Positions 10,727-24,446 of a stretch of DNA of 24,446 bases are shown here, in pieces (position 1 is the first letter of the stretch; every line of letters starts with the position of its first letter). The stretch lies in the IMG/VR virus record IMGVR_UViG_3300017708_001215, positions 1-24,446 of that record. The stretch is one strand, 5' to 3'. The position numbers and the translations under genes were made by a program. This stretch comes from a virus. Under the pieces are notes generated by a model that was not told the origin of the DNA, searched no databases, and saw only the letters and a list, made by a program, of their open reading frames with translations.

Positions 10727-10727
10727 A

Positions 10728-11110: not shown

Positions 11111-11125
11111 TTAATTCTTATGCAA

Positions 11126-11299: not shown

Positions 11300-11328
11300 G
11301 TTTCTCCGAGTGGTGTGAAGACTTTAAT

Positions 11329-11380: not shown

Positions 11381-11389
11381 AATGCTTAT

Positions 11390-11418: not shown

Positions 11419-11432
11419 TTATGTGCGGGTGC

Positions 11433-11924: not shown

Positions 11925-12125
11925 TTAAGAGGATAACATATCAGATAGAACATCTTCTCCATAGCAATCAATAATCTCTTCTTTTATATCATTCAAGTCA
12001 TAATCTTTAAGGTTTTGTTCAATACTTTCAACAGCAAAAGTAATCAAAGATTTCATATCCATTCCTTCTACAATCATCTCTGCATAAGCATTCTTCAGTT
12101 GATCGATTTGATTGAGAGTCATCAT
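11925..12125 (-). CDS. Small acidic helical protein (66 aa)
   Basis: The protein starts MMTLNQIDQLKNAYAEMIVE and contains the block SLITFAVESIEQNLKDYDLN, ending EEIIDCYGEDVLSDMLSS. It is almost entirely helical and acidic. Sequences with 'D-Y-x-x-x-(E/D)-I-x-(D/E)-EIID-x-YGE-(D/E)-(V/L)-L' at the end occur in small cyanophage proteins as I recall; function unknown. The gene begins ATGATG, so the start may be either ATG. Upstream, AAGTAACACTCACTCACAC is a degenerate version of the repeated element. Confidence 0.85.
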   Translation of the reverse strand: MMTLNQIDQLKNAYAEMIVEGMDMKSLITFAVESIEQNLKDYDLNDIKEEIIDCYGEDVLSDMLSS

Positions 12126-12157
12126 TTTAAAAAGTGTGAGTGAGTGTTACTTAATGA

Positions 12158-12499
12158 CTAGGCAAAGATGTAACCATTAGAGAAATCATCGACATTATAG
12201 ACTTTACTTTGTCCTGCCATTCCTACAAACTTTCTTACAAACCATTTGTAATTCTTTTGAAATACTCCCTCTCCAGCAACACAAAACTCATCACAAAGTG
12301 CATTCAGTCTGCTCTTTGTTGTTGTTGATTGATAACCACCATCGAAGATTGTCATCGAATCATCATCAATAGTTGCAATTTGATTGCCATGAAGATAAAC
12401 GAAACTTACACCCTCAATAGTAATGACTTGAGTGTTACCAGATTTCCAATCAAGATTTGACTGGATTGCTTGACACATTTCGGTTTCGATTTTACGCAT
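12158..12499 (-). CDS. Conserved phage protein with YLHGN...STTTKSRLNAL motif
   Basis: The 113-residue protein has the features of a widely distributed phage family: an N-terminal helix (METEMCQAIQSN type), a beta region with VSFVYLHGNQIATIDDDSM, then IFDGGYQSTTTKSRLNALCD, and FQKNYKWFVRK. I remember this family from both T4-like and T7-like cyanophages (DGGWQSNTTKSRLNA form). Function is unknown. Length is normal. The ATG lies ~100 bases after a copy of the repeated promoter element, with a structured leader between. Confidence 0.9.
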   Translation of the reverse strand: MRKIETEMCQAIQSNLDWKSGNTQVITIEGVSFVYLHGNQIATIDDDSMTIFDGGYQSTTTKSRLNALCDEFCVAGEGVFQKNYKWFVRKFVGMAGQSKVYNVDDFSNGYIFA

Positions 12500-12525
12500 G
12501 ATTTAAAAGTTTTAGAAAAAGATTG

Positions 12526-12604
12526 GTGTGAGTTTATCACCAGCAGTAGAGTTGCCAACTGACTCGCTTAGGAGTGGTGATTAGGTGTCCTGTGCCCCTC
12601 ACAC
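12526..12604 (-). other. Structured leader RNA before the 113-aa gene
   Basis: On the minus strand GTGTGAG (12604-12598) pairs perfectly with CTCACAC (12532-12526), closing a 79-base domain. Inside, ATCACC pairs with GGTGAT (6 bp) and encloses an AGTTG/CAACT hairpin. The layout is that of a compact multi-stem RNA, such as a leader or an autoregulatory site. It lacks a T-loop and an anticodon arm, so it is not a tRNA. Folding was judged by eye. Confidence 0.45.
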
Positions 12605-12632
12605 TACTATGACACTTTAAAGGTGAGTAACT
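12603..12632 (-). promoter_or_regulatory. Repeated upstream element, copy 3
   Basis: The minus strand reads GTTACTCACCTTTAAAGTGT then CATAGTAGTGTGAG. It directly precedes the structured leader of the 113-residue gene; the TAGTGTGAG end overlaps the leader's closing stem. Confidence 0.75.
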
Positions 12633-12647
12633 TTAATCTAACCTAAA

Positions 12648-12887
12648 TCACATGCCATTCATGAACTCGTGTAACTCTTCTAAGTATTGCTCTTCAGTGT
12701 CAAACTGTCTACCATAGATTACACAAGGGAAAGTTTTCTTTTGAAACATAGTAGAAGTAACTTCACAGTCTTGTTTGTCATAACCCATTTCAATAAGAGT
12801 GTTTACATAAGGATTAGAAGTAGTCATAGGTTTGTAGATAGAAAGATTAGAAAGTTGTGTGAGAGAGTCGTTAAACAGATCAAGCAT
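12648..12887 (-). CDS. Small protein (79 aa), unknown function
   Basis: The protein starts MLDLFNDSLTQLSNLSIYKP and continues with NPYVNTLIEMGYDKQDCEVT, a Phe/Tyr-containing middle (KKTFPCVIYGRQFDTEEQYL) and a helical C-terminus. I chose ATG 12887, which overlaps the upstream gene by 8 nt (ATGCTTGA); the longer frame from 12923 would run 44 nt into the upstream gene and gains only hydrophobic residues. I do not recognise a family. It is probably translationally coupled to the 75-residue gene. Confidence 0.8.
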   Translation of the reverse strand: MLDLFNDSLTQLSNLSIYKPMTTSNPYVNTLIEMGYDKQDCEVTSTMFQKKTFPCVIYGRQFDTEEQYLEELHEFMNGM

Positions 12888-13107
12888 TTGTTGCTTCAGA
12901 ATATACATCATAAAACATATCAAATGCCATTAAATCATGCACAAATGAATTCATGTTTGATTGATCAGCAACCCAATCGTATGCCATATCTAAATCAGCA
13001 CCGGTATCTAATACAAACGATTGTAAACCTTCAAGTGCAGATAAAAACGCAGGATCATAAGCGATTTGTCCGCTGATTGGTCTGATCTGTTGATTAGTGT
13101 TCTTCAT
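12880..13107 (-). CDS. Small acidic protein (75 aa), unknown function
   Basis: The protein starts MKNTNQQIRPISGQIAYDPA and has an acidic, Met/Asp/Phe-rich C-terminal half (DMAYDWVADQSNMNSFVHDL). No known domain was recognised. The repeated promoter element (copy 4) abuts the ATG with no gap, so the mRNA may be leaderless or very short-leadered. The stop overlaps the next start by 8 nt. Confidence 0.8.
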   Translation of the reverse strand: MKNTNQQIRPISGQIAYDPAFLSALEGLQSFVLDTGADLDMAYDWVADQSNMNSFVHDLMAFDMFYDVYSEATNA

Positions 13108-13137
13108 ACTACTAAGACACTTTCGAGGTGAGTAACT
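13108..13137 (-). promoter_or_regulatory. Repeated upstream element, copy 4 (abuts ATG)
   Basis: The minus strand reads GTTACTCACCTCGAAAGTGT then CTTAGTAGT, followed immediately by the ATG at 13107. With a -10 box at the usual place, transcription would start at or inside the start codon. Confidence 0.75.
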
Positions 13138-13144
13138 TTTAATC

Positions 13145-13426
13145 TTATACTAATTCTTGTTGATAAGACATTAGATTCTCTTCTGTAATCTCATCTACAC
13201 TCTCTTGAATCACCTGATAGATGTAATCGTTGTTTCCTACATCATCAAAGATACGTGCAATCAATGCAGGATCATTTACCTCACTATCATAATCAAACTC
13301 ACCATTTTCATCCTTCATATGAATATCTTCCTTGGTATAAATCCATGCGGCACACTCTGCATCTTCTCCCTGTTCTTTGATCATCGATGATACTCGGTCT
13401 TGAAGTTGCTTGAGAGTGTAGTTCAT
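13145..13426 (-). CDS. Conserved acidic protein (93 aa)
   Basis: The protein starts MNYTLKQLQDRVSSMIKEQG and carries GEDAECAAWIYTKEDIHM, an acidic linker, and IARIFDDVGNNDYIYQVIQE. The layout 'helix, QGxDAxxAAxIxTKED, acidic loop, (L/I)xDVGxxDYIYQ' matches a small protein common in cyanophages as I recall; function unknown. The acidic loop suggests binding to a basic partner, but this is speculation. A shortened copy of the repeated element (13441-13450) precedes it. Confidence 0.87.
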   Translation of the reverse strand: MNYTLKQLQDRVSSMIKEQGEDAECAAWIYTKEDIHMKDENGEFDYDSEVNDPALIARIFDDVGNNDYIYQVIQESVDEITEENLMSYQQELV

Positions 13427-13440
13427 GATTTGAATGAATA

Positions 13441-13450
13441 AGGTGAGTAA
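13441..13450 (-). promoter_or_regulatory. Repeated upstream element, copy 5 (reduced)
   Basis: Only the proximal part, TTACTCACCT on the minus strand, is conserved; the AAAGTGT part is replaced by TATTCATTC. It lies 15 bases before the ATG at 13426, closer than in the other copies. It may be decayed or a different use of the same box. Confidence 0.5.
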
Positions 13451-13483
13451 ATGTTAGTTAGTCGCTTCAGTAAATGAAACTAA

Positions 13484-13756
13484 TCAACCACAACATGCCA
13501 TCGGAGAATATTCTTCGCGAGGCATCTTGTCAGTATTGTAACCAGTCACCTCAGAACCGTTAGCAATACGAGAATGCCAATCATACTTTGCTTCGATAGC
13601 AAGAATTGTGCTGTATGATTTCATACCATTAACACGGAAAGTAACGCGACGAATGAAACGACGAACAGTCACTTTCATTCCTTTGACTTCATCAGCTTCA
13701 GCAATGAATGCCTCGGGGAAGTAATCAACGATCGTGGTGCTGTTGGTGACTTGCAT
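13484..13756 (-). CDS. Small protein (90 aa), unknown function
   Basis: The protein starts MQVTNSTTIVDYFPEAFIAE, then shows alternating beta-type segments (GMKVTVRRFIRRVTFRVNGM; YSTILAIEAKYDWHSRI) and ends in PMACCG. The paired C-terminal Cys could bind metal or form a disulphide; this is not shown. No family was recognised. It has its own full-consensus repeated promoter element (copy 6). Confidence 0.85.
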   Translation of the reverse strand: MQVTNSTTIVDYFPEAFIAEADEVKGMKVTVRRFIRRVTFRVNGMKSYSTILAIEAKYDWHSRIANGSEVTGYNTDKMPREEYSPMACCG

Positions 13757-13775
13757 AACGTTGAATGGTTCTTAC

Positions 13776-13805
13776 ACTATAAGGACACTTTCGAGGTGAG
13801 TAACT
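13776..13805 (-). promoter_or_regulatory. Repeated upstream element, copy 6
   Basis: The minus strand reads GTTACTCACCTCGAAAGTGT then CCTTATAGTGTAAG; TATAGT is a good -10. The ATG at 13756 follows after about 19 bases. Confidence 0.8.
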
Positions 13806-13806
13806 T

Positions 13807-14088
13807 TCAAAATGCTAAACATGCCCAACGATCTAATTTTGTGCCATAATACTTGTTGATAGTTTGAGTTACAACTTCATTGCACTCACTATCACAAAAA
13901 CCCCATTCTTGATGTGCTTGTAGATAACGATACATTACACTTTGAGCATTGATTGCATCATCATTATCAGCAAGAAGTAGAGTGAAGAAACTATTCACCT
14001 TATCAATAACATCATCAGGAGTATCAATGTAACATTCCCATTCGCTACGCTTCAGTGTGATTGTTTTCATTGAATTAGAAATAGTCAT
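13807..14088 (-). CDS. Small protein (93 aa), unknown function
   Basis: The protein starts MTISNSMKTITLKRSEWECY; the second Met (ATG 14070) is an equally possible start since neither has a Shine-Dalgarno sequence. Visible features are an acidic helix (TPDDVIDKVNSFFTLLLADN), a Cys pair (GFCDSEC) and the end DRWACLAF. I do not recognise it. It lies about 30 bases after the 60-residue gene with no promoter element between, so the two probably form one unit. Confidence 0.82.
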   Translation of the reverse strand: MTISNSMKTITLKRSEWECYIDTPDDVIDKVNSFFTLLLADNDDAINAQSVMYRYLQAHQEWGFCDSECNEVVTQTINKYYGTKLDRWACLAF

Positions 14089-14118
14089 GAAGAATAAAAT
14101 TAGAATCTTATATGTTAA

Positions 14119-14301
14119 TCAACCTCCAAACATTTCATCAAATAATGGTGTCTCACGATTCTCACGATCATATTGTGAATTAACTGCCATAATTTCAGTT
14201 TCAATCCATGCTAACTCCATACGCTTCTTATCAAGTTGTTGACGAAGATCATAAAGTTTTTGATTGCGTTCGGTGATTGTCATCATTTTAGTCTTGCTCA
14301 T
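14119..14301 (-). CDS. Small coiled-coil-like protein (60 aa)
   Basis: The protein starts MSKTKMMTITERNQKLYDLR and is one long charged helix over about residues 9-45 (QLDKKRMELAWIETEIMAVN) with heptad-like Leu/Met/Ile spacing, ending in a flexible tail (ETPLFDEMFGG). Such small coiled coils often act as oligomerisation or inhibitor peptides; nothing specific can be said. The repeated element (copy 7) abuts its ATG. Confidence 0.78.
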   Translation of the reverse strand: MSKTKMMTITERNQKLYDLRQQLDKKRMELAWIETEIMAVNSQYDRENRETPLFDEMFGG

Positions 14302-14331
14302 ACAACTATGACAGTTTAGAGGTGAGTAACT
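14302..14331 (-). promoter_or_regulatory. Repeated upstream element, copy 7 (abuts ATG)
   Basis: The minus strand reads GTTACTCACCTCTAAACTGT then CATAGTTGT, with the ATG at 14301 directly next. The AAACTGT variant (C for G) is shared with copies 8, 9 and 12. Confidence 0.75.
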
Positions 14332-14332
14332 T

Positions 14333-14656
14333 TTAATCCTTAAACTTTTCCATTATCATAGCAATAACTACGAAAACAGAGATAGGTATAACAACATACC
14401 AATACTGAATAAGTAACCAAAGCATGAAAATAAACCCTAGCAATATAACCCAACCCATGGCATTTCCTATATCACTAAGAGTAGAACTTTCACATGGTTT
14501 ATTATAAGATCTCTCGCATTGTACTATACAACCGGGGTTTCTACGTTGCACCATACAAATTGCATCATATGCCGTCGCTGCTTCCACTGTTTCAACATAT
14601 TGCTGAAACATATCAGTTTGACCAACTTTAGGATGTACTCTAATGTCGTAAATCAT
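14333..14656 (-). CDS. Small membrane protein with two transmembrane helices (107 aa)
   Basis: The N-terminal ~60 residues are soluble (MIYDIRVHPKVGQTDMFQQY; then TVEAATAYDAICMVQRRNPG and several Cys), followed by two adjacent hydrophobic segments at about 67-84 (MGWVILLGFIFMLWLLIQ) and 86-103 (WYVVIPISVFVVIAM), ending in MEKFKD. With no signal peptide, the likely layout is a cytoplasmic N-domain anchored by a helical hairpin in the host membrane. The N-domain resembles small conserved phage proteins with TAYDAI and RNPG motifs. It could act in membrane remodelling or lysis control; function is unknown. Confidence 0.83.
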   Translation of the reverse strand: MIYDIRVHPKVGQTDMFQQYVETVEAATAYDAICMVQRRNPGCIVQCERSYNKPCESSTLSDIGNAMGWVILLGFIFMLWLLIQYWYVVIPISVFVVIAMIMEKFKD

Positions 14657-14677
14657 AACTAATCCTCATAGTGTTTT

Positions 14678-14836
14678 TCATGCTGGTGTTACACTCCATT
14701 CATCTGTTGGAACCATTGTTTTGATGACATGTTCAACATTTTCGATTCCATAAACTACAACTTTCTGAGTTGAAATGAAACCACTTTTCTTTTCACGTTT
14801 CCATGAAACAACCCATCGATCACAAGATACATTCAT
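14678..14836 (-). CDS. Small protein (52 aa), unknown function
   Basis: ATG 14836 to TGA 14678 encodes MNVSCDRWVVSWKREKKSGF and continues through a beta-rich region (ISTQKVVVYGIENVEHVIKT) to MVPTDEWSVTPA. The ATG overlaps the TGA of the upstream gene (ATGA), a strong sign that it is translated. It may be a single small beta-sheet domain. No family was recognised. Confidence 0.72.
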   Translation of the reverse strand: MNVSCDRWVVSWKREKKSGFISTQKVVVYGIENVEHVIKTMVPTDEWSVTPA

Positions 14837-15033
14837 ACCCAATTCTCTATAAATTCGTCAAGTGTGTAACCTTCGCCAGTTGATGTTTCTTCAATCAATT
14901 GTTCGATTGTAAGTTCTTCCATCTTCAAACGATATTCCTCTGGTGTGTCATCATCAGGGTCATAATCATCATGACAAAGATACTCCCATTCACGAACAAG
15001 TGCATCAATTAGTTGCTCTTTAGTATAATCCAT
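14833..15033 (-). CDS. Small acidic conserved protein (66 aa)
   Basis: The protein starts MDYTKEQLIDALVREWEYLC and continues HDDYDPDDDTPEEYRLKMEE, ending in TGEGYTLDEFIENWV. The pattern 'TKEQLxDALVxExxYLCHDDxDPD...TPEEY...ETSTxxxxTLDEF' is typical of a conserved small cyanophage protein. It is very acidic. ATG 15033, two bases after the stop of the upstream gene, is preferred to the TTG at 15039. It sits in a three-gene unit with the 128- and 52-residue genes. Confidence 0.88.
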   Translation of the reverse strand: MDYTKEQLIDALVREWEYLCHDDYDPDDDTPEEYRLKMEELTIEQLIEETSTGEGYTLDEFIENWV

Positions 15034-15035
15034 AA

Positions 15036-15422
15036 TCAAGCACCCTGATAGTATGAATTACGATAAAGATAACCACCTGCCCAATCACAATTCTCCAACA
15101 TAAACTCACGCTCTTGGATGATTAGCAGATTGAAACGAACACCTTTAGCAGGTGCTTTGTATGATGCTGCTTTGTAAACTTCACCAGTCTTCTTATCAAT
15201 GAAGGCATGAACTGATTCAGTCTCACCATTGACACATTGCATCACTTTGTGATACTTACGACCAGAGATGAGTGCATAAGAATAGTTCTTACCATTAGGA
15301 TGTGAACGTTGATGACTTTGCTGAAGAGCATCACACAGCATCAGAGCATACTTAGTGACATTCAATTGAATGGTGTTCTGAGCATCTTTTTGGGCAACGT
15401 AGTCTGTGAATGTGGTGGTCAT
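15036..15422 (-). CDS. Conserved phage protein with KTGEVYKAASYKAPAKGVR motif (128 aa)
   Basis: The protein starts MTTTFTDYVAQKDAQNTIQL. The central block ISGRKYHKVMQCVNGETESV, followed by FIDKKTGEVYKAASYKAPAK and GVRFNLL, is a hallmark of a family shared by T4-like and T7-like cyanophages and other phages; it usually ends in a tyrosine-rich GGYLYRN segment, as here. Function is unknown; the mixture of basic and aromatic residues fits nucleic-acid or protein binding. It leads a three-gene unit under repeated element copy 8. Confidence 0.9.
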   Translation of the reverse strand: MTTTFTDYVAQKDAQNTIQLNVTKYALMLCDALQQSHQRSHPNGKNYSYALISGRKYHKVMQCVNGETESVHAFIDKKTGEVYKAASYKAPAKGVRFNLLIIQEREFMLENCDWAGGYLYRNSYYQGA

Positions 15423-15439
15423 AATGTTTGGATGCTTAT

Positions 15440-15469
15440 ACTATAAGGACAGTTTGAAGGTGAGTAACT
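15440..15469 (-). promoter_or_regulatory. Repeated upstream element, copy 8
   Basis: The minus strand reads GTTACTCACCTTCAAACTGT then CCTTATAGTATAAG, with a good TATAGT -10. The ATG at 15422 follows after about 17 bases. Confidence 0.8.
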
Positions 15470-15474
15470 TTAAT

Positions 15475-16377
15475 TTACCATGTTTTTGCCATCAAAAAAT
15501 TCGCACGACTGAACTCTTTACGGTCAACAACCTTGAAGATGCCATATTGATTGCTGATAACATAACCTTCATGCAGACTATAAGTATCACCAATCATACA
15601 AGTAATGTCATCGGTTTCATTGGTGAACCAGAACAAATCGTCCTTGATAGTTGCAACCAACTTCCACAATCGCATCACATTAATATCAATATCGAATTTT
15701 TCTGCAATTTCATTTTCGTCAATGTCATTCTCAGCACGGATACAATCATTGATATGTTTTTTGACCTTTGCAGCAGTTTTATCATTCAAAAAAGAACCAT
15801 GACATAAGGTTGCCATTTGTTTGGCAAAATTACAAACGTCTTTCAAATCTTCACGATAAGGGTTCAATGAAACTTCTGGTTTTACAAAGAAACATTTATA
15901 GGTACTTTTGGGACAAAGTATCATAGGTGATGAAACTGCATTACGAAGGTCATCATCTGCCACATAGATTGTATGGGGTGCAATGATAATATCTTCTGCA
16001 ATTATTTCAGGAAAGATGTAAGTGATCGTGTTGGGACGATAAGTAAGGCTACCACCATAACCAATAAAATCACCTTGAAAGATAGAATCTGTGCGAGGCA
16101 AACAATCAAAGCAAGCATGAAGAATACGCGCAACTTTACCCTGATGGTTTTTGTCAATTTCTTCATGAGAATGATTGATTTTGATTTTTACTTTGTTGAA
16201 AACAGATTTAGTGCCAACAAAAAATGTATTGGTTGCAGGATCTGTACCCCAAACAATAGCAGGAGCACCATCCATTTTAGTGCTGATGAAACTATCAGGT
16301 TCAGAAAACCAATCAAGAACCGAAAGATCTCCAGTCAAGATAGAATCTTCAGGGTGTTGTAGGTGGGTGTTCTTCAT
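15475..16377 (-). CDS. Nucleotidyltransferase/nucleic-acid-ligase-fold protein
   Basis: The 300-residue protein carries the motifs of the covalent nucleotidyltransferase (ligase/capping) superfamily in order: motif I K-x-D-G at 34-37 (STKMDGAPAIVWG), a motif-III-like FQGDF at 100-104, motif IV EG at 270-271 (HEGYVIS), and a motif V-like FKVVDRKEF at 281-289. The middle segment LTYRPNTITYIFPE resembles the FKPNTVTY block of phage DUF6267-type proteins, as I recall them. K34 is the expected adenylated lysine. T4-like phages use such enzymes for RNA repair or DNA sealing, but the substrate here is unknown and the protein has no separate C-terminal OB domain. It is a single-gene unit; the repeated element (copy 9) abuts its ATG. 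Confidence 0.75.
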   Translation of the reverse strand: MKNTHLQHPEDSILTGDLSVLDWFSEPDSFISTKMDGAPAIVWGTDPATNTFFVGTKSVFNKVKIKINHSHEEIDKNHQGKVARILHACFDCLPRTDSIFQGDFIGYGGSLTYRPNTITYIFPEIIAEDIIIAPHTIYVADDDLRNAVSSPMILCPKSTYKCFFVKPEVSLNPYREDLKDVCNFAKQMATLCHGSFLNDKTAAKVKKHINDCIRAENDIDENEIAEKFDIDINVMRLWKLVATIKDDLFWFTNETDDITCMIGDTYSLHEGYVISNQYGIFKVVDRKEFSRANFLMAKTW

Positions 16378-16407
16378 ACTACTGAAACAGTTTAGAGGTG
16401 AGTAATT
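16378..16407 (-). promoter_or_regulatory. Repeated upstream element, copy 9 (abuts ATG)
   Basis: The minus strand reads ATTACTCACCTCTAAACTGT then TTCAGTAGT, directly followed by the ATG at 16377. It comes immediately after a strong terminator (16421-16447). Confidence 0.75.
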
Positions 16408-16420
16408 TTTACATGAGCAT

Positions 16421-16447
16421 AAAAAAGGAGGGTGGCAATACCCTCCT
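16421..16447 (-). terminator. Strong intrinsic terminator
   Basis: A perfect 8-bp stem, AGGAGGGT/ACCCTCCT (16426-16433 with 16440-16447), with a 6-base loop is followed on the minus strand by six T. It lies 8 bases after the stop of the 60-residue gene and just before repeated element copy 9. Confidence 0.9.
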
Positions 16448-16454
16448 CATAATA

Positions 16455-16637
16455 TCACTGATCAATAACAGAATAATATGCTTTGTCGATGATAACATTA
16501 AACAGAAAGGAAAGATCCTCTCCTAGTTTTTTAATTTCGTAATTATGAATACGGAGACGTGCTTTGATGTCTAAGAACAAAAGATCAAAGGTAGCATCAT
16601 AGTCCTCACGTTCCATAATCACGGTGGGACGAGTCAT
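16455..16637 (-). CDS. Small protein (60 aa), unknown function
   Basis: The protein starts MTRPTVIMEREDYDATFDLL and is mostly helical with a hydrophobic middle (LSFLFNVIIDKAYYSVID) that is too polar at its edges to be a clear membrane span. No family was recognised. It is a single-gene unit bounded by repeated element copy 10 upstream and a strong terminator downstream, which supports its being real. Confidence 0.8.
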   Translation of the reverse strand: MTRPTVIMEREDYDATFDLLFLDIKARLRIHNYEIKKLGEDLSFLFNVIIDKAYYSVIDQ

Positions 16638-16656
16638 AAAAGAATCATGTGCTTAC

Positions 16657-16686
16657 ACTACAGATACACTTTGATGGTGAGTAACT
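16657..16686 (-). promoter_or_regulatory. Repeated upstream element, copy 10
   Basis: The minus strand reads GTTACTCACCATCAAAGTGT then ATCTGTAGTGTAAG. The ATG at 16637 follows after 19 bases. It begins at the stop of the SAM-binding methyltransferase part. Confidence 0.75.
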
Positions 16687-17112
16687 TTAACTGAAGAAAG
16701 ATTCCACTCCTACAGGTTCACCAAATCCATAATCATATTCTAGTGCATTAGTACAAACGTAGTGAGGGTGATCAACTGGAACACCAATTCTTTTACACAA
16801 CTCAGCATGATTATCTTCCATAAGTTCTACTGCAAACAGCATATTATCATTGATATGTGTTAAGTCATGATACTTCAATAATTCTGTTTGCAGTGCCAAT
16901 AGGAAGTTCCCTGACCCCGCAGAATTATCAAGAAAAGTAGACTTAGGATCTTTTAGCGTAGATTTAGAGATCTCTGATACCATTTCAACACAAAGTTCAG
17001 CAGGAGTGAATACTTCACCTGTCTCATCAATTCTATCATCGGTCCTTTCAATGTCCGACCCTGTAGTAGAGTTGTGCTGATTCTTTTTAGAAGTATCGTC
17101 TTTTCTAAACAT
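16687..17112 (-). CDS. SAM-binding half of a split adenine methyltransferase
   Basis: The 141-residue protein holds the first half of an N6-adenine methyltransferase: motif X-like TGEVFTPAELCVEMV (31-45), motif I FLDNSAGSGNF (60-70, the SAM-binding Gly loop), motif II AVELMED (94-100) and motif III CTNALEYDYGFG (120-131). It stops before any catalytic NPPY motif. That motif is in the gene directly upstream. ATG 17112 overlaps that gene's TAG by 8 nt (ATGTTTAG); the longer frame from 17175 would run deep into it. Alone it could bind SAM but not methylate DNA, so it probably works as a complex with the upstream product. The first ~30 residues are polar and probably disordered. Confidence 0.82.
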   Translation of the reverse strand: MFRKDDTSKKNQHNSTTGSDIERTDDRIDETGEVFTPAELCVEMVSEISKSTLKDPKSTFLDNSAGSGNFLLALQTELLKYHDLTHINDNMLFAVELMEDNHAELCKRIGVPVDHPHYVCTNALEYDYGFGEPVGVESFFS

Positions 17113-18112
17113 AAAAATTTGGAATAAAGTTGTTGATGTATTCTCTGTCTTCTTGTGAAATGTTGTAATAGTCAAATACAGAATCGTCGTCCCATTGTTG
17201 ATTCAATGGCGGCATAGGTACACAGTCAAGGTATCTTTTAATATACAAATGTTGGGAAACTTTGTTGATAGACAGAGCAAACCTTGCAAACTTAGTCTTT
17301 AGATAAGAGACCATATTTGCTCTCTCTTCAGAACTATTCAGAAGAAAACAACGTGCTCCTTTCTTGTAACCATACAGATCACTTCTTTCATAGAAGAATG
17401 TCCAGAAGTCATCTTTACAAGTCTTAGTCTTATCTTTTGCTCTACCATCTCCACAAATTTCAGGTGCCTTCAGTGTGCAATCTGTTGCACGATCTTCCAA
17501 CTTAGCAACATGCTGATAAACATTACTAGAAATAGCAAGTTCTTTGATATTGTTGACAATATCCCAATGCTTTTCTGTTGGTTCCCAATATCCACTAGGG
17601 AGATCGTCTAGACTGTCAATATAATACTTATTGCCAGTGAAATCATACTCAACTTCAATAGGCCCAACGTGATTTTTTGCAGCATAAGTGATAACCAACG
17701 GTGCTGCAAATTGTGCAGGAGCAAAGACATAATTTCCATTGAAGAACTTCAACTTCTTGACTCTACCTTTTAGAGCATTCTTTACCTGTTTCTCAATATC
17801 TTTTGTGGTACGATACAACCAACCAGCAGGATGAATTAAACTCACATTGTCCGAATTATTAAGTGCCATGAGTAAGAACTCAAGGTGGATGTTTTTTAGA
17901 TAAGGTGGATTACCAATGGTATGAGTAAAGTGCATATATTCAAGAGATTTGCGGTCAGTAATTACATTTATTCTATCATCAATCTGCTTAATTGCATAAA
18001 TGTGTCTGGGATCATCTTCCCACACAATAATATCTTCGGGAGCATATCCTTGGTGCTTGATTGCACACAAAGAATGCAAACCTGAAGGGTCTCCAGTGAT
18101 AAGAAGTTTCAT
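17105..18112 (-). CDS. Catalytic (NPPY) part of an N6-adenine DNA methyltransferase
   Basis: The 335-residue protein has the adenine-methyltransferase motif IV NPPY at residues 68-71 (THTIGNPPYLK), a following helix-and-strand (NVSLIHPAGWLYRT) typical of the domain, and a C-terminal region (e.g. QHLYIKRYLDCVPMPPLNQQ) like the target-recognition part of type IIG/I-like enzymes. The N-terminus MKLLITGDPSGLHSLC is strand-helix-like, and VWEDD plays the part of the acidic motif II, but no FxGxG SAM loop is present. The missing loop is in the downstream 141-residue protein. The start shares one base with the helicase stop (TGATG). The likely role is DNA methylation of the phage genome, self-protecting or in a restriction-like module. 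Confidence 0.82.
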   Translation of the reverse strand: MKLLITGDPSGLHSLCAIKHQGYAPEDIIVWEDDPRHIYAIKQIDDRINVITDRKSLEYMHFTHTIGNPPYLKNIHLEFLLMALNNSDNVSLIHPAGWLYRTTKDIEKQVKNALKGRVKKLKFFNGNYVFAPAQFAAPLVITYAAKNHVGPIEVEYDFTGNKYYIDSLDDLPSGYWEPTEKHWDIVNNIKELAISSNVYQHVAKLEDRATDCTLKAPEICGDGRAKDKTKTCKDDFWTFFYERSDLYGYKKGARCFLLNSSEERANMVSYLKTKFARFALSINKVSQHLYIKRYLDCVPMPPLNQQWDDDSVFDYYNISQEDREYINNFIPNFYV

Positions 18113-20229
18113 CAGATGAACAGTTCGTCAAACAATTCTACACTAAGTTGCTGCTGAGTCTTACCTGAGCATGACAGTTTATGAAGTGTCTTACACTCAT
18201 CTTCGCTCATAGAGTGTCGAATATCGTCCGCTGCTTGAGTAATAGTGTGACTCAATGTTTTTGGATTGATAACATCCTCGTTGATTAATTGACGAACAAT
18301 CTCCTCACAATCCATAGTATCATGAATGTAATTCTCAGACTCAATTACGGTATAGATTGAGTTGACTTGCTCTCCACACTTAAGACAGTGGTAGATAACC
18401 AAGGGCACACGTTCTAGGATTGCCTTGATAGTTTCTTTCTTGGAATAAAGCATAGACTTCTCAGACTTCTCCGATTGATTCTCCTTCTTCTTGTTAGTTT
18501 TGCCATTAGCGTTGTTATCATTCAAAAGGACGGACTTAACAACATTGCCATAACTTGCTTCAAGATTTACATCAAACTCAATGTTCTCCAAGTTCTTGAA
18601 ATTCAGGCGATCTGCAATACCAGAGACCAAATTGATTGTGTTACCTACATCAGCAGCGAGAACTGCAACAACCTGATCCTGATTAAGAGTGGCAAACTCT
18701 TCATTCCACTCAAAAATAGCAGCGAAGTCAGTGTAAGTGTACTGAGTAAGTTCTGGATTAGATTCACATGCAGCTGCATAAGTTTGCCGAAGAGATTCAA
18801 GACAACGTTGCGGGCAAAAATCAATCACCTGCCAATCATGTGTGCCAGATCCTCCCCTGAATGCAAATTGTGTCCAGAATTCAATACTCTTACCCTCTTT
18901 ACAATTGATAATGGTATCAATCTTCTTCGCAGTTACTCCGCGAACGTTAGCACTTTGGGTAATAATGCAGGAAGCAACATTCTCATCGATATGCTTGTTG
19001 ATCATATCGGAATCAACTTTAGCACTGCCATGTGCAACTAGAGGAGCAAATCGTGTGCCCTTCATATACTCTGCAAATGCATCACATGCTTTTACGGATG
19101 ACAGAGTAATATAAAGATGGGTTGCATCTTTTAGAAGACGATTGTTGCAATGAACATGGCGTTCCCCAACAAACATTCTACTTACAAACTCCTGGACAAG
19201 TGCAGGTTCCATGAAGTTACCTTCCTCATCAACATTGAAGAGATTCTTCATAGCATCGGGGTCATCTCCATAGACTGCCTGATACTGAGCAGATTCATAC
19301 TTGGCAAGGATGATATTCATCGAGGGGCGATCATTCAGTCCCAACTTCTTCTCAAGTTGCTCTTCAAAATAGGAGTAAATGAAACGATTGGAATCTGGGA
19401 AATCCCATACCATTTTGTATGCAGTGCCAGTCACATACAACACGGGGCAATTAGTTGCCTCGCGCAGTTTGTTCCACTGATCGGTATTATATCCATGATC
19501 TGCTTCATCATAAACAAGCAGATCAATATCAATCGGCAGATTCAAAGTTTGACGCTGACCTTGAACAGTAGACCACAGAATAAGTTGCTTATCTGTATTA
19601 TACCAATACTCTATCTGTTTTTTATAGTCTTTGTCTTTGATGTCAATGAAGACAAGGTTATCAAAGTCGCTGAAGTTCTTGCTATCGTCCTTCCAAGATT
19701 GCATAGGGGAAGTATAACGAGATACAACCAAAGTTGCTTTGAATCCCTTATCAACAATGTGTGAAAGTGTCATGATAGATTTACCTGCACGACACTTAGC
19801 AAACAACAAGAATTCCAGATAATCTGCCTGTGCCTTAGCAACAAATTCTTTCTGATACTTTTCAAGTATAAGGGGATCTTTTTTCTCAGGAGTTGCTGTA
19901 AAGAACTTTTCTGCAATAATGTTTTTGATAATATCCAGCGTGGTCTTGTGTGAGAACCACTCTGCATATTTGCAGATGTTAGGAAGTTTCTTTAGATATT
20001 CATGAATCTCAGTATCAAGATAAGCGGAACCTTCCCACCAACCAAGTAAAACAAGTTTTTCTCCTCTTGCTTTCAAATAGTTGTGAAACTTTGCCCAATC
20101 TCCATCTTTATGTCGCTCTTCAAACGTGCGTTCAGTTTGTCCCACACCAAACACTTTGTGATCTTCAGATGCAATCAAATAGATGTTCATAATAAAAGGT
20201 TGTTCAATAGGTAAATCATACCACACCAT
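18112..20229 (-). CDS. GIY-YIG-like nuclease / SF2 helicase fusion protein
   Basis: A 705-residue protein. Residues ~14-95 look like a GIY-YIG/T5orf172-type domain (MNIYLIAS, then VFGVGQTERTFEERH, and E74 in LDTEIHEYLK). Residues ~120-480 are an SF2 helicase: Walker A AKCRAGKSI (K150), DEAD box YDEADH (240-245), motif III VTGTA (266-270), motif V SANVRGV, and motif VI WTQFAFRGG (Q454, R458). A charged linker (~571-595) leads to a CxxC (C615, C618) and a helical end. Together with the coupled methyltransferase genes it resembles a restriction-modification or DNA-processing module. ATG 20190 (MNIYLIAS), at the nuclease domain edge, is an alternative start. A replication or recombination helicase is the other reading. 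Confidence 0.8.
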   Translation of the reverse strand: MVWYDLPIEQPFIMNIYLIASEDHKVFGVGQTERTFEERHKDGDWAKFHNYLKARGEKLVLLGWWEGSAYLDTEIHEYLKKLPNICKYAEWFSHKTTLDIIKNIIAEKFFTATPEKKDPLILEKYQKEFVAKAQADYLEFLLFAKCRAGKSIMTLSHIVDKGFKATLVVSRYTSPMQSWKDDSKNFSDFDNLVFIDIKDKDYKKQIEYWYNTDKQLILWSTVQGQRQTLNLPIDIDLLVYDEADHGYNTDQWNKLREATNCPVLYVTGTAYKMVWDFPDSNRFIYSYFEEQLEKKLGLNDRPSMNIILAKYESAQYQAVYGDDPDAMKNLFNVDEEGNFMEPALVQEFVSRMFVGERHVHCNNRLLKDATHLYITLSSVKACDAFAEYMKGTRFAPLVAHGSAKVDSDMINKHIDENVASCIITQSANVRGVTAKKIDTIINCKEGKSIEFWTQFAFRGGSGTHDWQVIDFCPQRCLESLRQTYAAACESNPELTQYTYTDFAAIFEWNEEFATLNQDQVVAVLAADVGNTINLVSGIADRLNFKNLENIEFDVNLEASYGNVVKSVLLNDNNANGKTNKKKENQSEKSEKSMLYSKKETIKAILERVPLVIYHCLKCGEQVNSIYTVIESENYIHDTMDCEEIVRQLINEDVINPKTLSHTITQAADDIRHSMSEDECKTLHKLSCSGKTQQQLSVELFDELFI

Positions 20230-20277
20230 TGATTAGATGGTGTTAGAAACGATTCTAGGAATGTCTGATGGCGTTCT

Positions 20278-20307
20278 TATTAGTAGAACACTTTAAAGGT
20301 GAGTAAT
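20278..20307 (-). promoter_or_regulatory. Repeated upstream element, copy 11
   Basis: The minus strand reads ATTACTCACCTTTAAAGTGT then TCTACTAATAAG. It lies ~50 bases before the helicase ATG at 20229 and would drive the three-gene helicase-methyltransferase unit. Confidence 0.72.
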
Positions 20308-20309
20308 AA

Positions 20310-20969
20310 TTAAACACCTGCTTTTATAGATTTATGCGCCAACCCAACAAGTTTTGTACGTTCTACACCTTTAGGAGCACGACCATTCTTCTCAGTGAAG
20401 TCCTTAATAAGTTCTGCTTTTCTTGCTTTCAGTGCGGCACCCTTCTCTTTATTTTTAGCAGCATCTCTTTCTTTTCGAGTCATACCACCACCATCATCGG
20501 TTTTCCAATTACGACGTGGTTTTGATTCAGTTTTCTTCTCTTCTTTCTTTTTAGTCGTCAGAAGTTTAGTTGCTACCTTTTCTGCTTCTCTAGATGATGT
20601 CTTTGACGCTTTTGATGCTGCTTCAGTACCACCAGATGCTCTTGCTGCTGCTCTTGCTTGTGCTGCTTTTTTCCTTTCTGCTTTTACTTTATCAGCATAC
20701 GATTGTTTAACTTCAGCACTACCTCTTTCTTTTGTTGGTTGTTCTTGACGAGTGCTTACTTGTCTCTGTGTTCCAATATCTTTTCTATCTTTATATGATT
20801 TAGCAGGAACCATTTTGCCGCCGCCAACAGCTACCATTCTCCGTTTTTCTGGTTCAGATTTTCTTCTATCTGCACCAATACGTCCACCTTCTCCAGACTT
20901 TTTAATCTGAGATGAACCCATCACGTCTTTGTCATAAACTTCCGCAATAAATTGAGAAAAACTTTTCAT
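20310..20969 (-). CDS. Basic protein with T4-type capsid-targeting sequence, candidate packaged internal protein
   Basis: The 219-residue protein starts MKSFSQFIAEVYDKD. The first ten residues match, nearly residue for residue, the capsid-targeting sequence of T4 internal protein III (MKTYQEFIAE), and I-A-E fits the (L/I)-x-E site cut by the prohead protease gp21. The rest is very rich in Lys, Arg and Ala (e.g. ADKVKAERKKAAQARAAARA), as expected for a DNA-associated internal protein; GGRIGADRRKSEPEKRRMVA and KDIGTQRQ blocks recur in cyanophage homologues as I recall. In T4 such proteins are packed with DNA and injected into the host. It has a sigma-70 promoter and a late-like AATAAATA upstream. 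The alternative is a scaffold or DNA-binding protein. Confidence 0.78.
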   Translation of the reverse strand: MKSFSQFIAEVYDKDVMGSSQIKKSGEGGRIGADRRKSEPEKRRMVAVGGGKMVPAKSYKDRKDIGTQRQVSTRQEQPTKERGSAEVKQSYADKVKAERKKAAQARAAARASGGTEAASKASKTSSREAEKVATKLLTTKKKEEKKTESKPRRNWKTDDGGGMTRKERDAAKNKEKGAALKARKAELIKDFTEKNGRAPKGVERTKLVGLAHKSIKAGV

Positions 20970-20990
20970 TGGTAGTCTTGACTTATCGAT

Positions 20991-21019
20991 ATTATATATT
21001 TATTGTCCCCGAAAGTCAA
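20991..21019 (-). promoter_or_regulatory. Sigma-70 promoter with overlapping late-like box
   Basis: The minus strand has TTGACT (21019-21014; 5/6), a 17-bp spacer and TATAAT (20996-20991; 6/6). The spacer contains AATAAATA, 7 of 8 matches to the T4 late box. The -35 hexamer lies in the loop of the perfect hairpin 21004-21032. It drives the basic capsid-targeted protein. Confidence 0.7.
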
Positions 21020-21032
21020 GAGTTCGGGGACA
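21004..21032. repeat. Perfect 10-bp palindrome enclosing a -35 hexamer
   Basis: TGTCCCCGAA (21004-21013) and TTCGGGGACA (21023-21032) form a perfect 10-bp stem with a 9-base loop. On the minus strand it comes after the stop of the 72-residue gene and could slow transcription, but it is followed by AATAAATAT and not by a U-tract. The loop contains the -35 box of the next promoter, so it may equally be an operator. Confidence 0.8.
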
Positions 21033-21054
21033 CCTCTTCAACTGTCCTACTTTT

Positions 21055-21273
21055 TCAATCGTCTTGCTCTTCCTGTTGCTCTTCTTTTTTATTAAGTCTC
21101 TCGCCTGGTTTTGCTACCAGATCCGCTTCATAAAAGTATTTTACTCTTTCACGACGTGCTTCAATTAGCATATCATACTGTTTCTGTTGATCTTTAGTAT
21201 ATCGGAAATCTTGACGCCTCCAAGTTTCGCGGAGTTCTTGAAGATGTGGGAGAACGTTTACAGTTTCAGTCAT
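21055..21273 (-). CDS. Small conserved helical protein (72 aa)
   Basis: The protein starts MTETVNVLPHLQELRETWRR and has the block YTKDQQKQYDMLIEARRERV, followed by KYFYEADLVAKPG and an acidic/Gln-rich tail. The 'ETWxxQxxRYTKxQQxxYDxLxxxRRERV' pattern is familiar from conserved small cyanophage proteins; function unknown. It is mostly helical and could bind nucleic acid or protein. It lies 20 bases after the 44-residue gene with no promoter element between, so it is probably the second gene of that unit. Confidence 0.85.
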   Translation of the reverse strand: MTETVNVLPHLQELRETWRRQDFRYTKDQQKQYDMLIEARRERVKYFYEADLVAKPGERLNKKEEQQEEQDD

Positions 21274-21293
21274 TGTTTTGTGTGGTTGTGGTT

Positions 21294-21428
21294 TTAGTAG
21301 TCGATGTTGCCGTTAAGATATTCTTTCATATTGAAGTCCTTTTGTTTTTCAACAAGGTCTTCAATATCTTCAGAAACAAAGTCAAAGTTTTCCATTTCTT
21401 CAACTTGAATGTCGTCGAACCAGTCCAT
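21294..21428 (-). CDS. Very small acidic protein (44 aa)
   Basis: ATG 21428 to TAA 21294 encodes MDWFDDIQVEEMENFDFVSE followed by DIEDLVEKQKDFNMKEYLNG and NIDY. It is strongly acidic, with Phe/Trp residues spaced as in DNA-mimic-like or partner-binding peptides; that is only a resemblance. The frame extends upstream to 21485, but that part covers repeated element copy 12, so the shorter start 13 bases after the element is preferred. No family was recognised. Confidence 0.72.
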   Translation of the reverse strand: MDWFDDIQVEEMENFDFVSEDIEDLVEKQKDFNMKEYLNGNIDY

Positions 21429-21441
21429 AAGTGCTGTGCTT

Positions 21442-21473
21442 ACAATAATAAAACAGTTTGAAGGTGAGTAATA
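21442..21473 (-). promoter_or_regulatory. Repeated upstream element, copy 12
   Basis: The minus strand reads ATTACTCACCTTCAAACTGT then TTTATTATTGTAAG. The ATG at 21428 follows 13 bases later. It begins at the stop of the 145-residue gene. Confidence 0.75.
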
Positions 21474-21474
21474 A

Positions 21475-21912
21475 TCAACAGGCAAGAATGCCGTCAGGGA
21501 TTTCCACAGGTTCTGGTGCTACCATATCTTCAAACTGGTGCATATCATAAGCAAACCAGTTATCATTGCGGAAAATGTAGGAGTATTCTTCACCTTCAGA
21601 GAAAAACTCTTCCATATCTTTATCAAGACGTGGGGGACAATCTTCACCGCGTTGTGAATAGTATTGGGGACCATATTCTTTGGTTTCTTTAATCTCTCTC
21701 ACATAAGGAGCAAGTTCTTTACCAGTCCAACACTCATTTGTCCAGCAAGTAGACATATCACCACCATCAATTAGTTCTGATACTTTATCTTTAGTGGTGT
21801 AATGTGTGTTTAGAATACGACCCAACCATTCTGGATAACCGTCCCAATGATGATAAACAGAAAGAATAGACTCATCTGAAAGTTGAATACCAATTCTTGA
21901 GCGAGTTCCCAT
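21475..21912 (-). CDS. Conserved phage protein with MGTRSRIGI...HWDGYPEWLG motif (145 aa)
   Basis: The protein starts MGTRSRIGIQLSDESILSVY, followed by HHWDGYPEWLGRILNTHY and, later, ELIDGGDMS. This N-terminal arrangement (xTRSRIGxxL...SVYxHWDGYPExLG) marks a family found in many phages and some bacteria, with no established function. The acidic middle and C-terminal half are typical. Length is normal for the family. It is preceded by repeated element copy 13 with a ~70-nt leader. Confidence 0.92.
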   Translation of the reverse strand: MGTRSRIGIQLSDESILSVYHHWDGYPEWLGRILNTHYTTKDKVSELIDGGDMSTCWTNECWTGKELAPYVREIKETKEYGPQYYSQRGEDCPPRLDKDMEEFFSEGEEYSYIFRNDNWFAYDMHQFEDMVAPEPVEIPDGILAC

Positions 21913-21982
21913 GATAAAGAAAGAAAGGAAACCAGAAGACCACTCTGGTGATTGGTTTAGTGGGGCGAATGCCGCAGGTCAC

Positions 21983-22012
21983 ACTATTGAAACACTTTAG
22001 AGGTGAGTAACT
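21983..22012 (-). promoter_or_regulatory. Repeated upstream element, copy 13
   Basis: The minus strand reads GTTACTCACCTCTAAAGTGT then TTCAATAGTGTGACC. It lies ~70 bases before the ATG at 21912 and starts at the stop of the 101-residue gene. It is the last copy on the right; none occurs beyond 22.0 kb. Confidence 0.75.
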
Positions 22013-23776: not shown

Positions 23777-24446
23777 TTAGCGACGGATCTCACTAATAGC
23801 GGGTTGACCTTGATTGAACACAACATCAACAACTGCCTGAACTTTCTTGGCAGTGCTGATACCAACTCGATCATAAGTTGGAATACAAACTAAACCAAAT
23901 GTCTTCTCACTTCCACCCAGACGGATCACACGACCGATAGACTGACTGATGCCAATGTAGTCCATGTTTCTCATGAAGATGACAGCCTCAAGTCCACTGA
24001 CGTTGATACCTTCAGACAGGATAGAGTGGTGAAGAACAACAAATTTCTTGGTCTTGTCCTTACCCCAAGTATTCAGAGTGTCAAAGAATACATCGCGATT
24101 GACTTTCTTGCCGTCGATGATTGCACCGGTCTTCGATGTAATCGTCATCCAAGAATAACCACGTTCAGCAAGTTGTAGGCAGAAATCTGAATGAGTGAGG
24201 AGATTGATGATTTGCTTTGTTGTGCGAGCACAGATCAAAGTCTTGTCAATGTTGTTGTCATCGATAGTTTCAATCAGATTGTCACAATCATCAGCAAACA
24301 TCACCTTGCGACCTTTGATCATAGGCAATTGCTTGACTACAACTTTAGGAGGAAGAATGTATCCCTGCTCAACCAACTCAGGAGCAGGAACATTGCACAG
24401 AACCTGACCATAAACAGACCAATTCATGCCTGGTTTAGTAGCAGCA
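23777..24446 (-). CDS. SF2 DNA helicase, C-terminal half (5' end outside window)
   Basis: The frame is open to the right edge (222 residues visible), so the start and the ATPase motifs I-II are beyond the window; the ATG at 24427 is internal. Seen are the segment after motif III (ELVEQGYILPPKVVVKQL), motif IV-like KTLICARTTKQI, motif V-like VLHHSILSEGINVSGL, and motif VI SQSIGRVIRLGG (Q-x-x-G-R-x-x-R). The block LEAVIFMRNMDYIGISQS is characteristic of a helicase common in cyanophages as I recall. Possible roles are DNA unwinding in recombination, replication or restriction. It is a different type from the GIY-YIG-fused helicase at 18112-20229. Family assignment within SF2 is uncertain. Confidence 0.88.
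   Translation of the reverse strand, partial: AATKPGMNWSVYGQVLCNVPAPELVEQGYILPPKVVVKQLPMIKGRKVMFADDCDNLIETIDDNNIDKTLICARTTKQIINLLTHSDFCLQLAERGYSWMTITSKTGAIIDGKKVNRDVFFDTLNTWGKDKTKKFVVLHHSILSEGINVSGLEAVIFMRNMDYIGISQSIGRVIRLGGSEKTFGLVCIPTYDRVGISTAKKVQAVVDVVFNQGQPAISEIRR

What the first reader, a model, noticed from the sequence alone, without database searches (positions are those of the whole stretch)
16687..20229. Phage-borne restriction-like module: GIY-YIG nuclease-helicase with a split methyltransferase
Three genes with overlaps of 1 and 8 nt under one promoter element combine a GIY-YIG/T5orf172-like domain, an SF2 motor and a DNA adenine methyltransferase. This gene content recalls restriction-modification (motor plus nuclease plus methylase), but the architecture matches no type I or III system I know. 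A lytic phage could use it to attack host or rival DNA while methylating its own, or to resolve recombination intermediates.
Basis: inference. Interest (0 to 1): 0.8.

Follow-up and report, generated by a model that had tools for sequence, protein, structure and literature searches.

The report
Phage restriction-like module, three-part methylase
A marine phage carries a nuclease-motor gene beside two genes that look like the two halves of one DNA-methylating enzyme, and in related phages the parts are swapped like cassettes, so it looks like a mix-and-match restriction system that could mark the phage's own DNA and attack other DNA.

Summary
On the minus strand, 20229-16687, three genes overlap by 1 and 8 nt: P1 (705 aa, GIY-YIG/T5orf172-like domain plus SF2 motor), P2 (335 aa, NPPY plus recognition region) and P3 (141 aa, methyltransferase motifs X-I-II). 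The set is conserved: of 44 P1 loci, 44 have an NPPY-type partner fused or adjacent and 43 have P3. P2 and P3 look like two halves of one gamma-type adenine methyltransferase in permuted order: Aeromonas phage Aeh1 has them as one protein, whose model matches permuted methyltransferases over both halves. Of 80 P3 loci, 73 lie beside or near an NPPY protein. In three S-CAM7 isolates the cassette is replaced exactly up to the start of P3. The segment before NPPY follows the nuclease-motor type; the part after it is shuffled among types. Homologous split systems lie on Firmicutes plasmids, so this is a new variant of ATP-dependent restriction-modification, not a new category. Nuclease activity is unproven: two positions aligned with catalytic residues are altered (Tyr to Phe, Glu to Asp). 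Some isolates carry P3 without a cassette. Methylation, cutting and target are inferred.

The parts
18112..20229 (-). P1, 705 aa: GIY-YIG/T5orf172-like domain + SF2 motor + C-terminal region
   Evidence: (PHROG 22930)
19945..20190 (-). P1 residues 14-95, GIY-YIG/T5orf172-like domain; Y17, G30, R39, D72, H76, E90 conserved; YIG Tyr is Phe, Glu position is Asp
   Evidence: T5orf172 in 3 of 29 members; modelled strand/helix order; profile comparison
18610..19884 (-). P1 residues 116-540, SF2 motor core
   Evidence: ResIII in 24 of 29; RadD Z 25.1, LlaBIII Z 22.6
18115..18609 (-). P1 residues 541-705, C-terminal region of unknown role
   Evidence: mainly helical, 558-591 disordered
17105..18112 (-). 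P2, 335 aa: catalytic NPPY half and recognition region of the methyltransferase
   Evidence: (Eco57I, sub-threshold)
17930..18112 (-). P2 residues 1-61, Rossmann-like segment before NPPY (GDPxG, VWE[ND]); follows the effector type, adaptor role inferred
17900..17911 (-). NPPY motif (P2 residues 68-71)
17108..17650 (-). P2 residues about 155-335, C-terminal (target-recognition) region, exchangeable
   Evidence: (Aeh1 fusion residues 1-249 with CamA 157-577)
16687..17112 (-). P3, 141 aa: AdoMet-binding half (motifs X, I, II; no NPPY)
   Evidence: (PHROG 4376)
17002..17019 (-). motif X, GEVFTP (P3 residues 32-37)
   Evidence: 95 of 95
16903..16929 (-). motif I, DNSAGSGNF (P3 residues 62-70)
   Evidence: 90 of 95
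20270..20306 (-). repeated promoter-like element upstream of P1
16649..16684 (-). repeated promoter-like element just past P3, upstream of the next gene

Best explanation
A phage-borne, ATP-dependent restriction-modification-like system. P2 and P3 assemble into one adenine-N6 methyltransferase: P3 gives the AdoMet-binding half (motifs X, I, II), P2 the catalytic NPPY half and the recognition region, in the permuted order NPPY-TRD-X-I. P1 joins this enzyme, probably through the Rossmann-like segment that precedes NPPY and goes with the effector type. On methylated (own) DNA the complex only keeps up the mark; at an unmethylated site (host chromosome or co-infecting phage) the motor of P1 is switched on and the GIY-YIG-like domain cuts or nicks. 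Specificity changes by swapping the NPPY-TRD part, the mode of attack by swapping the effector cassette, while P3 is kept. Shown here by comparison: gene content, conservation, linkage, natural fusions, module exchange. Inferred: assembly, docking, methylation, cleavage, target.
For: Linkage: 44 of 44 P1 loci with an NPPY-type partner (19 in one chain, 25 adjacent), 43 of 44 with P3. P3: 73 of 80 kept loci have an NPP/NYP protein upstream (49 within 60 nt, 24 at 60-800 nt); background 0 of 298 other ORFs of 120 aa or more. Split enzyme: natural fusion in Aeh1 and three relatives aligns with P2 from NPPY on and then with P3; its model aligns over both halves with M.MboIIA (Z 10.0), EcoP15I Mod (8.7), M.RsrI (8.5), CcrM (8.3). 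P3 has motif X 95 of 95, motif I 90, motif II 89, NPP[YFW] 0. P1 and NPPY part in one chain in 19 of 44 loci. Exchange: S-CAM7 isolates, 6 of 8 multi-member NPPY-TRD clusters with more than one effector type against 0 of 4 for the segment before NPPY. Homologous plasmid systems. Purifying selection.
Against: No activity data. GIY-YIG catalytic positions altered, and the domain is only weakly supported by profile (T5orf172 in 3 of 29; P1 group against the T5orf172 group E 0.0042, probability 8%). ACG-2014f C7 and US44 carry P3 with no NPPY gene beside it, although these genomes hold a weak match to another methyltransferase about 100 kb away. P2 has its own Rossmann-like segment, and the partner in S-CAM7 0809CC03 (L141 3925-4986) has by eye a motif-I-like stretch of its own. 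One P1-linked partner (L131) has NAPY. The dnmA-yeeB-yeeC relative showed no restriction in B. subtilis (PMC9973331, passages). Foldseek alone gave no match below E 0.001 for the fusion model.
Confidence: 0.6

Rival explanations
1. Methylation with a non-cutting motor: P2+P3 methylate phage DNA, as protection against host restriction or as a mark, and P1 with an inactive nuclease domain remodels or clears DNA (replication, packaging, exclusion) without cutting.
For: Tyr to Phe in 28 of 32 and Glu to Asp in 32 of 32 at positions aligned with catalytic residues; no restriction seen for dnmA-yeeB-yeeC in B. subtilis (PMC9973331, passages).
Against: Other residues of the domain (Y17, G30, D72, E90) are kept in 31 or 32 of 32 and R39 in 26; other cassettes put a different, PD-(D/E)XK-like gene (by eye) or another GIY-YIG-like domain in the same slot, which suggests a nuclease role.
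Confidence: 0.2
2. P2 is a complete methyltransferase by itself, and P3 is a separate AdoMet-binding regulator or a second-site helper.
For: P2's segment before NPPY is Rossmann-like, with [GCY]DPxG in 46 and V[WIL][ED] in 42 of 47 P1-linked partners; P3 occurs without a neighbouring NPPY gene in ACG-2014f C7 and US44.
Against: Partners with no such segment exist: NPPY at residue 9 in P-SSM2_036, Aeh1_84 and the 189-aa partner in L069; P2 starts too late to hold a motif X (sequence); P3 has X, I and II but no catalytic motif; the fusion model is one complete domain.
Confidence: 0.15
3. DNA repair or recombination module: the motor and the GIY-YIG-like domain process recombination intermediates and the methyltransferase is a passenger.
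For: The T5orf172 family was proposed to act in recombination (PMC7824862, passages); RadD is the best structural match of the motor.
Against: Tight linkage and fusion with methyltransferase halves; replacement by other nuclease types beside the same P3; recognition regions diversify and shuffle, which repair would not need.
Confidence: 0.05

Closest known systems
Plasmid T5orf172-ResIII-Eco57I protein with a separate N-6 DNA methylase half (Companilactobacillus futsaii, WP_195702120/WP_195702121; similar gene pairs in Enterococcus faecium and Paenisporosarcina)
   Same: same domains, split of the AdoMet half, homologous to P1, P2 and P3
   Different: P1 and P2 counterparts are one chain with an extra N-terminal region; 235-aa half; on plasmids; no cassette exchange examined. 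In two other plasmid loci read no such half is listed
dnmA-yeeB-yeeC of Bacillus subtilis (PMC9973331, passages)
   Same: adenine MTase, SF2 helicase and T5orf172 protein in one operon
   Different: three separate proteins, MmeI-like MTase not described as split; no restriction found in B. subtilis
Type ISP enzymes LlaGI/LlaBIII (abstract starts; LlaBIII match)
   Same: order nuclease, SF2 motor, MTase, recognition domain; 19 of 44 phage loci have P1 and the NPPY part in one chain
   Different: Mrr nuclease and intact MTase in one chain; here GIY-YIG-like domain and split, permuted MTase
Circularly permuted M.EcoKI-like methylases of jumbo phages (PMC7824862, passages)
   Same: permuted gamma-type adenine MTase in large phages
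   Different: described as methylases; the passages read do not mention a constant separate half or linked motor-nuclease cassettes
M.AquI (recalled, no call)
   Same: one MTase made by two gene products
   Different: cytosine-C5 enzyme without motor or nuclease

Membership tests
Type ISP restriction-modification | single polypeptide with nuclease, motor, MTase and TRD | tested here: not met
   three genes in the window; 19 of 44 loci join P1 with the NPPY part but P3 stays separate
Type ISP restriction-modification | Mrr-type nuclease domain | tested here: not met
   no Mrr hit in the window P1 at E up to 1, nor among the 25 families that most of 29 P1 members match; T5orf172 in 3; modelled order of elements fits GIY-YIG
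Type ISP restriction-modification | SF2 motor | tested here: met
   (LlaBIII Z 22.6, 370 residues, 4.5 A)
Type I restriction-modification | separate HsdS specificity subunit beside HsdM and HsdR | tested here: not met
   no specificity-subunit hit among the eight window proteins scanned; the recognition region is part of P2
Type III restriction-modification | complete Mod subunit in one chain plus Res subunit | tested here: not met
   the MTase is divided between P2 and P3
Gamma-type adenine-N6 MTase (P2+P3) | motifs X, I and NPPY in one fold | tested here: met
   met by P2 and P3 together, on the Aeh1 fusion and its model; not by either protein alone
Gamma-type adenine-N6 MTase (P2+P3) | m6A activity | not testable with these tools
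   needs methylomes or assays
GIY-YIG superfamily, T5orf172 type (P1 N-terminus) | fold and sequence profile | tested here: inconclusive
   T5orf172 in 3 of 29 members; profile links E 3.7e-5 and 1.6e-4 through sister domains, 0.0042 directly; element order fits; fold search did not cover the domain
GIY-YIG superfamily, T5orf172 type (P1 N-terminus) | catalytic Tyr, Tyr, Arg, Glu | tested here: inconclusive
   first Tyr 31 of 32, Arg 26 of 32; second Tyr is Phe in 28, Glu position is Asp in 32; the set of catalytic residues is recalled
Split restriction-modification systems of Firmicutes plasmids | T5orf172 + ResIII + Eco57I plus separate N6_Mtase half | tested here: met
   homologous components; gene arrangement differs
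Any restriction-modification system | cleavage blocked by methylation at the same site | not testable with these tools
   needs assays

The most novel reading that the evidence does not exclude
T4-like cyanophages run a combinatorial restriction-modification family built on a three-part methyltransferase: a conserved AdoMet half acting in trans (P3), an exchangeable NPPY-TRD specificity part, and an effector-specific adaptor joined to it at the NPPY motif. Phages reprogram both target and weapon by exchanging the cassette beside P3, and one P3 may serve several partners (two NPP genes before one P3 in five loci). It would be an inter-phage weapon that evolves by recombination of modules.
Probability: 0.45. 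Interest if true: 0.85.

Novelty: new variant of a known kind. Interest (0 to 1): 0.7.

Why it matters
[quoted passage not shown] Natural cassette swaps in near-identical isolates make the specificity directly testable by long-read sequencing. A methyltransferase whose AdoMet half works in trans with many specificity parts would also be useful for building methylation tools.

Tried and rejected
Phage-only origin: scans of the genome collection (84,980 species, by the tool's description) with the P1 alignment (96 pattern matches) and the P3 alignment (236) confirmed no relative. Each scan rests on two short peptide patterns, and tblastn against plasmids did find relatives, so I rejected 'phage-only'.

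'P3 always beside an NPPY gene' (my own early note) was rejected after ACG-2014f C7 and US44. 'Architecture without relatives' was rejected; two further plasmid loci have the large helicase and Eco57I genes but no listed separate half (the plasmid gene tables are incomplete), and in a third the half stands without a listed large gene in the stretch.

Known defence families: PADLOC gave nothing for P1, one weak type II MTase hit for P2 (0.0024) and nine weak hits, eight of them generic MTase or MTase-REase models, for P3 (best 6.7e-5). NCBIfam gave nothing for P1 and P2 and one far sub-threshold MTase hit for P3. A PDB sequence search with the P1 profile found nothing at E 0.01. The fold search of P1 lists only motor matches; no GIY-YIG entry appears there, which is not evidence against one. 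A P2-P3 complex could not be modelled; the natural fusion of an Aeromonas phage was modelled instead. The PD-(D/E)XK reading of the small genes is by eye; Pfam gave no significant hit.

Alignment A4 held one wrong row (L127), replaced in A5. In A3 the first part of the P3 rows is misplaced at the N-terminus.

Literature: all 10 searches used. From titles and abstract starts, none of the listed papers was recognised as describing this split system in phages or the cassette exchange; lists were capped and subscription papers are not held. Opened by passages only: PMC1564403, PMC9602691, PMC7824862, PMC9973331, PMC7251935. Type ISP papers: listing and abstract starts only.
Full report
WHAT IS THERE. 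The window is a 24,446-base IMG/VR virus record with T4-like baseplate genes (gp6, gp25). At DNA level this locus matches 42 phage records: Synechococcus 38, Prochlorococcus 3, 'Marine virus' 1. On the minus strand three genes overlap by 1 and 8 nt: P1 20229-18112 (705 aa), P2 18112-17105 (335 aa), P3 17112-16687 (141 aa; the ATG fits homologue starts). P1 and P3 match PHROG families of unknown function; one PHROG family (11371) matches P2 and P3 together. dN/dS is 0.09-0.27 in seven pairwise comparisons. A repeated element (TTACTCACC core) stands 77 nt upstream of P1 and again just past P3; 13 copies in the window, all on the minus strand, against 0.08 in simulated sequence.

P1. Residues 116-540 are an SF2 motor: ResIII is matched by 24 of 29 family members, best 7.3e-11 (the window protein 9.5e-4, under the curated cut-off). 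The AlphaFold model (29 sequences, pLDDT 79.3, pTM 0.77) aligns with RadD (Z 25.1, 322 residues, 4.0 A) and, among many SF2 proteins, with the Type ISP enzyme LlaBIII (Z 22.6, 370 residues, 4.5 A). The N-terminal domain is GIY-YIG/T5orf172-like, with moderate support: three of 29 members hit T5orf172 (best 2.1e-5). A profile of the other members aligns with the N-terminal domains of sister proteins that read as GIY-YIG by eye (hhalign E 3.7e-5, probability 71%), these align with a group that includes T5orf172 hits (1.6e-4, 50%), and the direct link is weak (0.0042, 8%; 20 column-shuffled controls of it gave 0.07-0.88). The modelled strand and helix order of residues 15-95 fits, at modest confidence. 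Over 32 members below 90% identity the first Tyr (31), G30 (32), R39 (26), D72 (32), H76 (28) and E90 (31) are kept, but the position aligned with the YIG tyrosine is Phe in 28 and that of the catalytic Glu is Asp in 32. The nuclease is plausible, with an altered and conserved site; activity is open.

P2 AND P3 LOOK LIKE HALVES OF ONE ENZYME. Of 95 unique P3 sequences, 95 carry motif X, 90 motif I, 89 motif II and 0 NPP[YFW]. P2 carries NPPY and the C-terminal region. Aeromonas phage Aeh1 and three relatives (L132-L135) have one protein that aligns first with P2 from NPPY on and then with P3 (window P2 28%, P3 23% identity). Its model (20 aligned sequences, pLDDT 75.8, pTM 0.70) aligns over both halves with M.MboIIA (Z 10.0, 146 residues, 3.4 A), EcoP15I Mod (8.7), M.RsrI (8.5) and CcrM (8.3); that these have the permuted (beta) motif order is recalled, apart from RsrI, whose entry title says beta class. 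The NPPY half aligns with M.TaqI 97-247 (Z 6.2, 104 residues, 2.1 A, 22% identity), residues 1-249 with CamA 157-577 (Z 6.5), the C half with BsaXI 346-491 (Z 6.0, 104 residues, 2.5 A); Z under 8 is weak by the tool's own note. Foldseek alone gave no match below E 0.001 (best CamA, 2.7e-3). Caveats: P2 also has a Rossmann-like segment before NPPY (GDPxG type in 46 of 47 P1-linked partners), but it starts too late to hold a motif X; other partners have NPPY at residue 9 and no such segment. The partner in S-CAM7 0809CC03 has a motif-I-like stretch of its own (by eye).

CONSERVED LINKAGE. From IMG/VR, 44 P1 loci were found: 44 of 44 have the NPPY-type partner (19 in one chain with P1, counted by length above 900 aa; in one of these, L131, the motif reads NAPY; 25 within 120 nt of P1's end), and 43 of 44 have P3 in the fetched stretch. 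Of 166 P3 relatives the best 80 were kept: 49 have an NPP[YFW] or NYP[YFW] protein within 60 nt upstream and 24 at 60-800 nt. Of the other 7, six have only 295-749 nt of upstream sequence, and one (L047) has a 1177-aa ORF with an Eco57I hit. None of 298 other mechanical ORFs of 120 aa or more in these loci has NPP[YFW]. Many loci are close relatives, so these are not independent events.

CASSETTE EXCHANGE. Three S-CAM7 isolates share flanks (98.3-99.3% identical on the P3 side, 94.7-99.3% on the other) and the P3 gene. Between them they carry P1+NPPY (0910CC49), a PD-(D/E)XK-like gene (by eye) + NPPY + SF2 (0910SB42), or motor-like pieces (by eye) + NPPY (0809CC03); similarity resumes one base before P3's start codon. 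In ACG-2014f, P1 is present in 2 records (layout read in C16: P3, P1, NPPY); C6 has P3, a 200-aa PD-(D/E)XK-like gene (by eye), NPPY, SF2, and that NPPY gene is found at 99% or more in 14 records, one a RefSeq copy; US44 has P3 and other small genes; C7 has P3 and no cassette. C7, C16, US44 and others hold a weak match to a different methyltransferase about 100 kb away. Over the P3 loci the effector slot holds P1, a second T5orf172/SF2 family, a PD-(D/E)XK-like gene with a separate SF2 gene, or a GIY-YIG-like domain fused straight to NPPY, besides rarer large fusions; in Klebsiella phage KpV477 a GIY-YIG domain fused to NPPY reaches E 1.9e-15.

WHERE THE JUNCTION IS. Of 138 candidate NPPY partner proteins I left out 5 of Aeh1 type, 3 without a segment before NPPY and 13 without a typed effector; none had several types; 117 remained, 88 after removal of duplicates, in 84 loci, some of them the same contig. 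Clusters of the segment before NPPY follow the effector type (adjusted mutual information 0.98; 0 of 4 multi-member clusters mixed); clusters of the NPPY-TRD part do not (0.32; 6 of 8 mixed). Cut-offs differ between the two (28% identity at E 1e-4 for the short segment, 30% at 1e-8 for the other). The window's P2 shows the same: residues 2-96 match S-CAM7 0910CC49 (P1 cassette, 43%) and residues 60-334 match S-CAM7 0910SB42 (other cassette, 50%). Reading: an effector-specific adaptor, an exchangeable specificity part, and P3 as the common AdoMet half. The adaptor role is inference.

BACTERIAL RELATIVES AND WHAT IS KNOWN. tblastn of P1 finds 12 plasmid records at 21.7-23.4% identity. In Companilactobacillus futsaii one 1481-aa protein holds T5orf172, ResIII and Eco57I (all above the Pfam cut-offs) and is followed by a separate 235-aa N-6 methylase half. 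P1, P2 and P3 align with these (single-comparison E 4e-15, 9e-7, 4e-11; P3 profile 1.7e-13). The 235-aa half has matches in 70 plasmid records; in two further loci it overlaps the large Eco57I gene by 8 nt, in two others no half is listed, and in one the half stands without a listed large gene. The dnmA-yeeB-yeeC operon forms m6A at GACGAG, showed no restriction in B. subtilis, and deletion of homologues in Vibrio crassostreae was reported to raise sensitivity to some phages (PMC9973331, abstract start and passages). Permuted phage adenine methylases have been noted (PMC7824862, passages).

VERDICT. A restriction-modification-like system of a new variant: split, permuted methyltransferase with a common AdoMet half, coupled to exchangeable motor-nuclease cassettes in cyanophages. 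Architecture and module exchange are shown by comparison; methylation, cutting and target are inferred.

Noticed in passing
window 10695-22010, minus strand: Thirteen copies of a promoter-like element (TTACTCACC core, most with a similar 35-40 nt context), all on the minus strand, 0.08 expected. Two copies bracket P1-P3; they could also serve as homology for cassette exchange.
   Followed up: partly
window 15475-16377, minus strand: DUF6267 protein with a ligase-like KxDG motif (34 of 36 homologues over 150 aa in my loci); it lies within 1.5 kb downstream of P3 in 12 of 58 P3 loci with enough sequence.
   Followed up: partly
window 23777-24427, minus strand: SF2 Helicase_C ORF close to the window's end, similar by eye to P-SSM2_039, which lies near the P3 of P-SSM2.
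   Followed up: no
L069, L070, L072, L089, L095: Two NPP[YF] genes in tandem before one P3: one AdoMet half may serve two specificity partners.
   Followed up: no
L131 4923-8177: P1-NPPY fusion whose catalytic motif reads NAPY.
   Followed up: no
L002 18669-19684: S-CAM7 has a second NPPY/P3 pair (genes 075/076) about 6 kb from the first, with only hypothetical proteins annotated beside it.
   Followed up: no
L143, L003, L139, L140: Repeats of up to about 90 nt, 71-100% identical, recur at many places around the ACG-2014f cassette sites; they may mediate exchange.
   Followed up: partly
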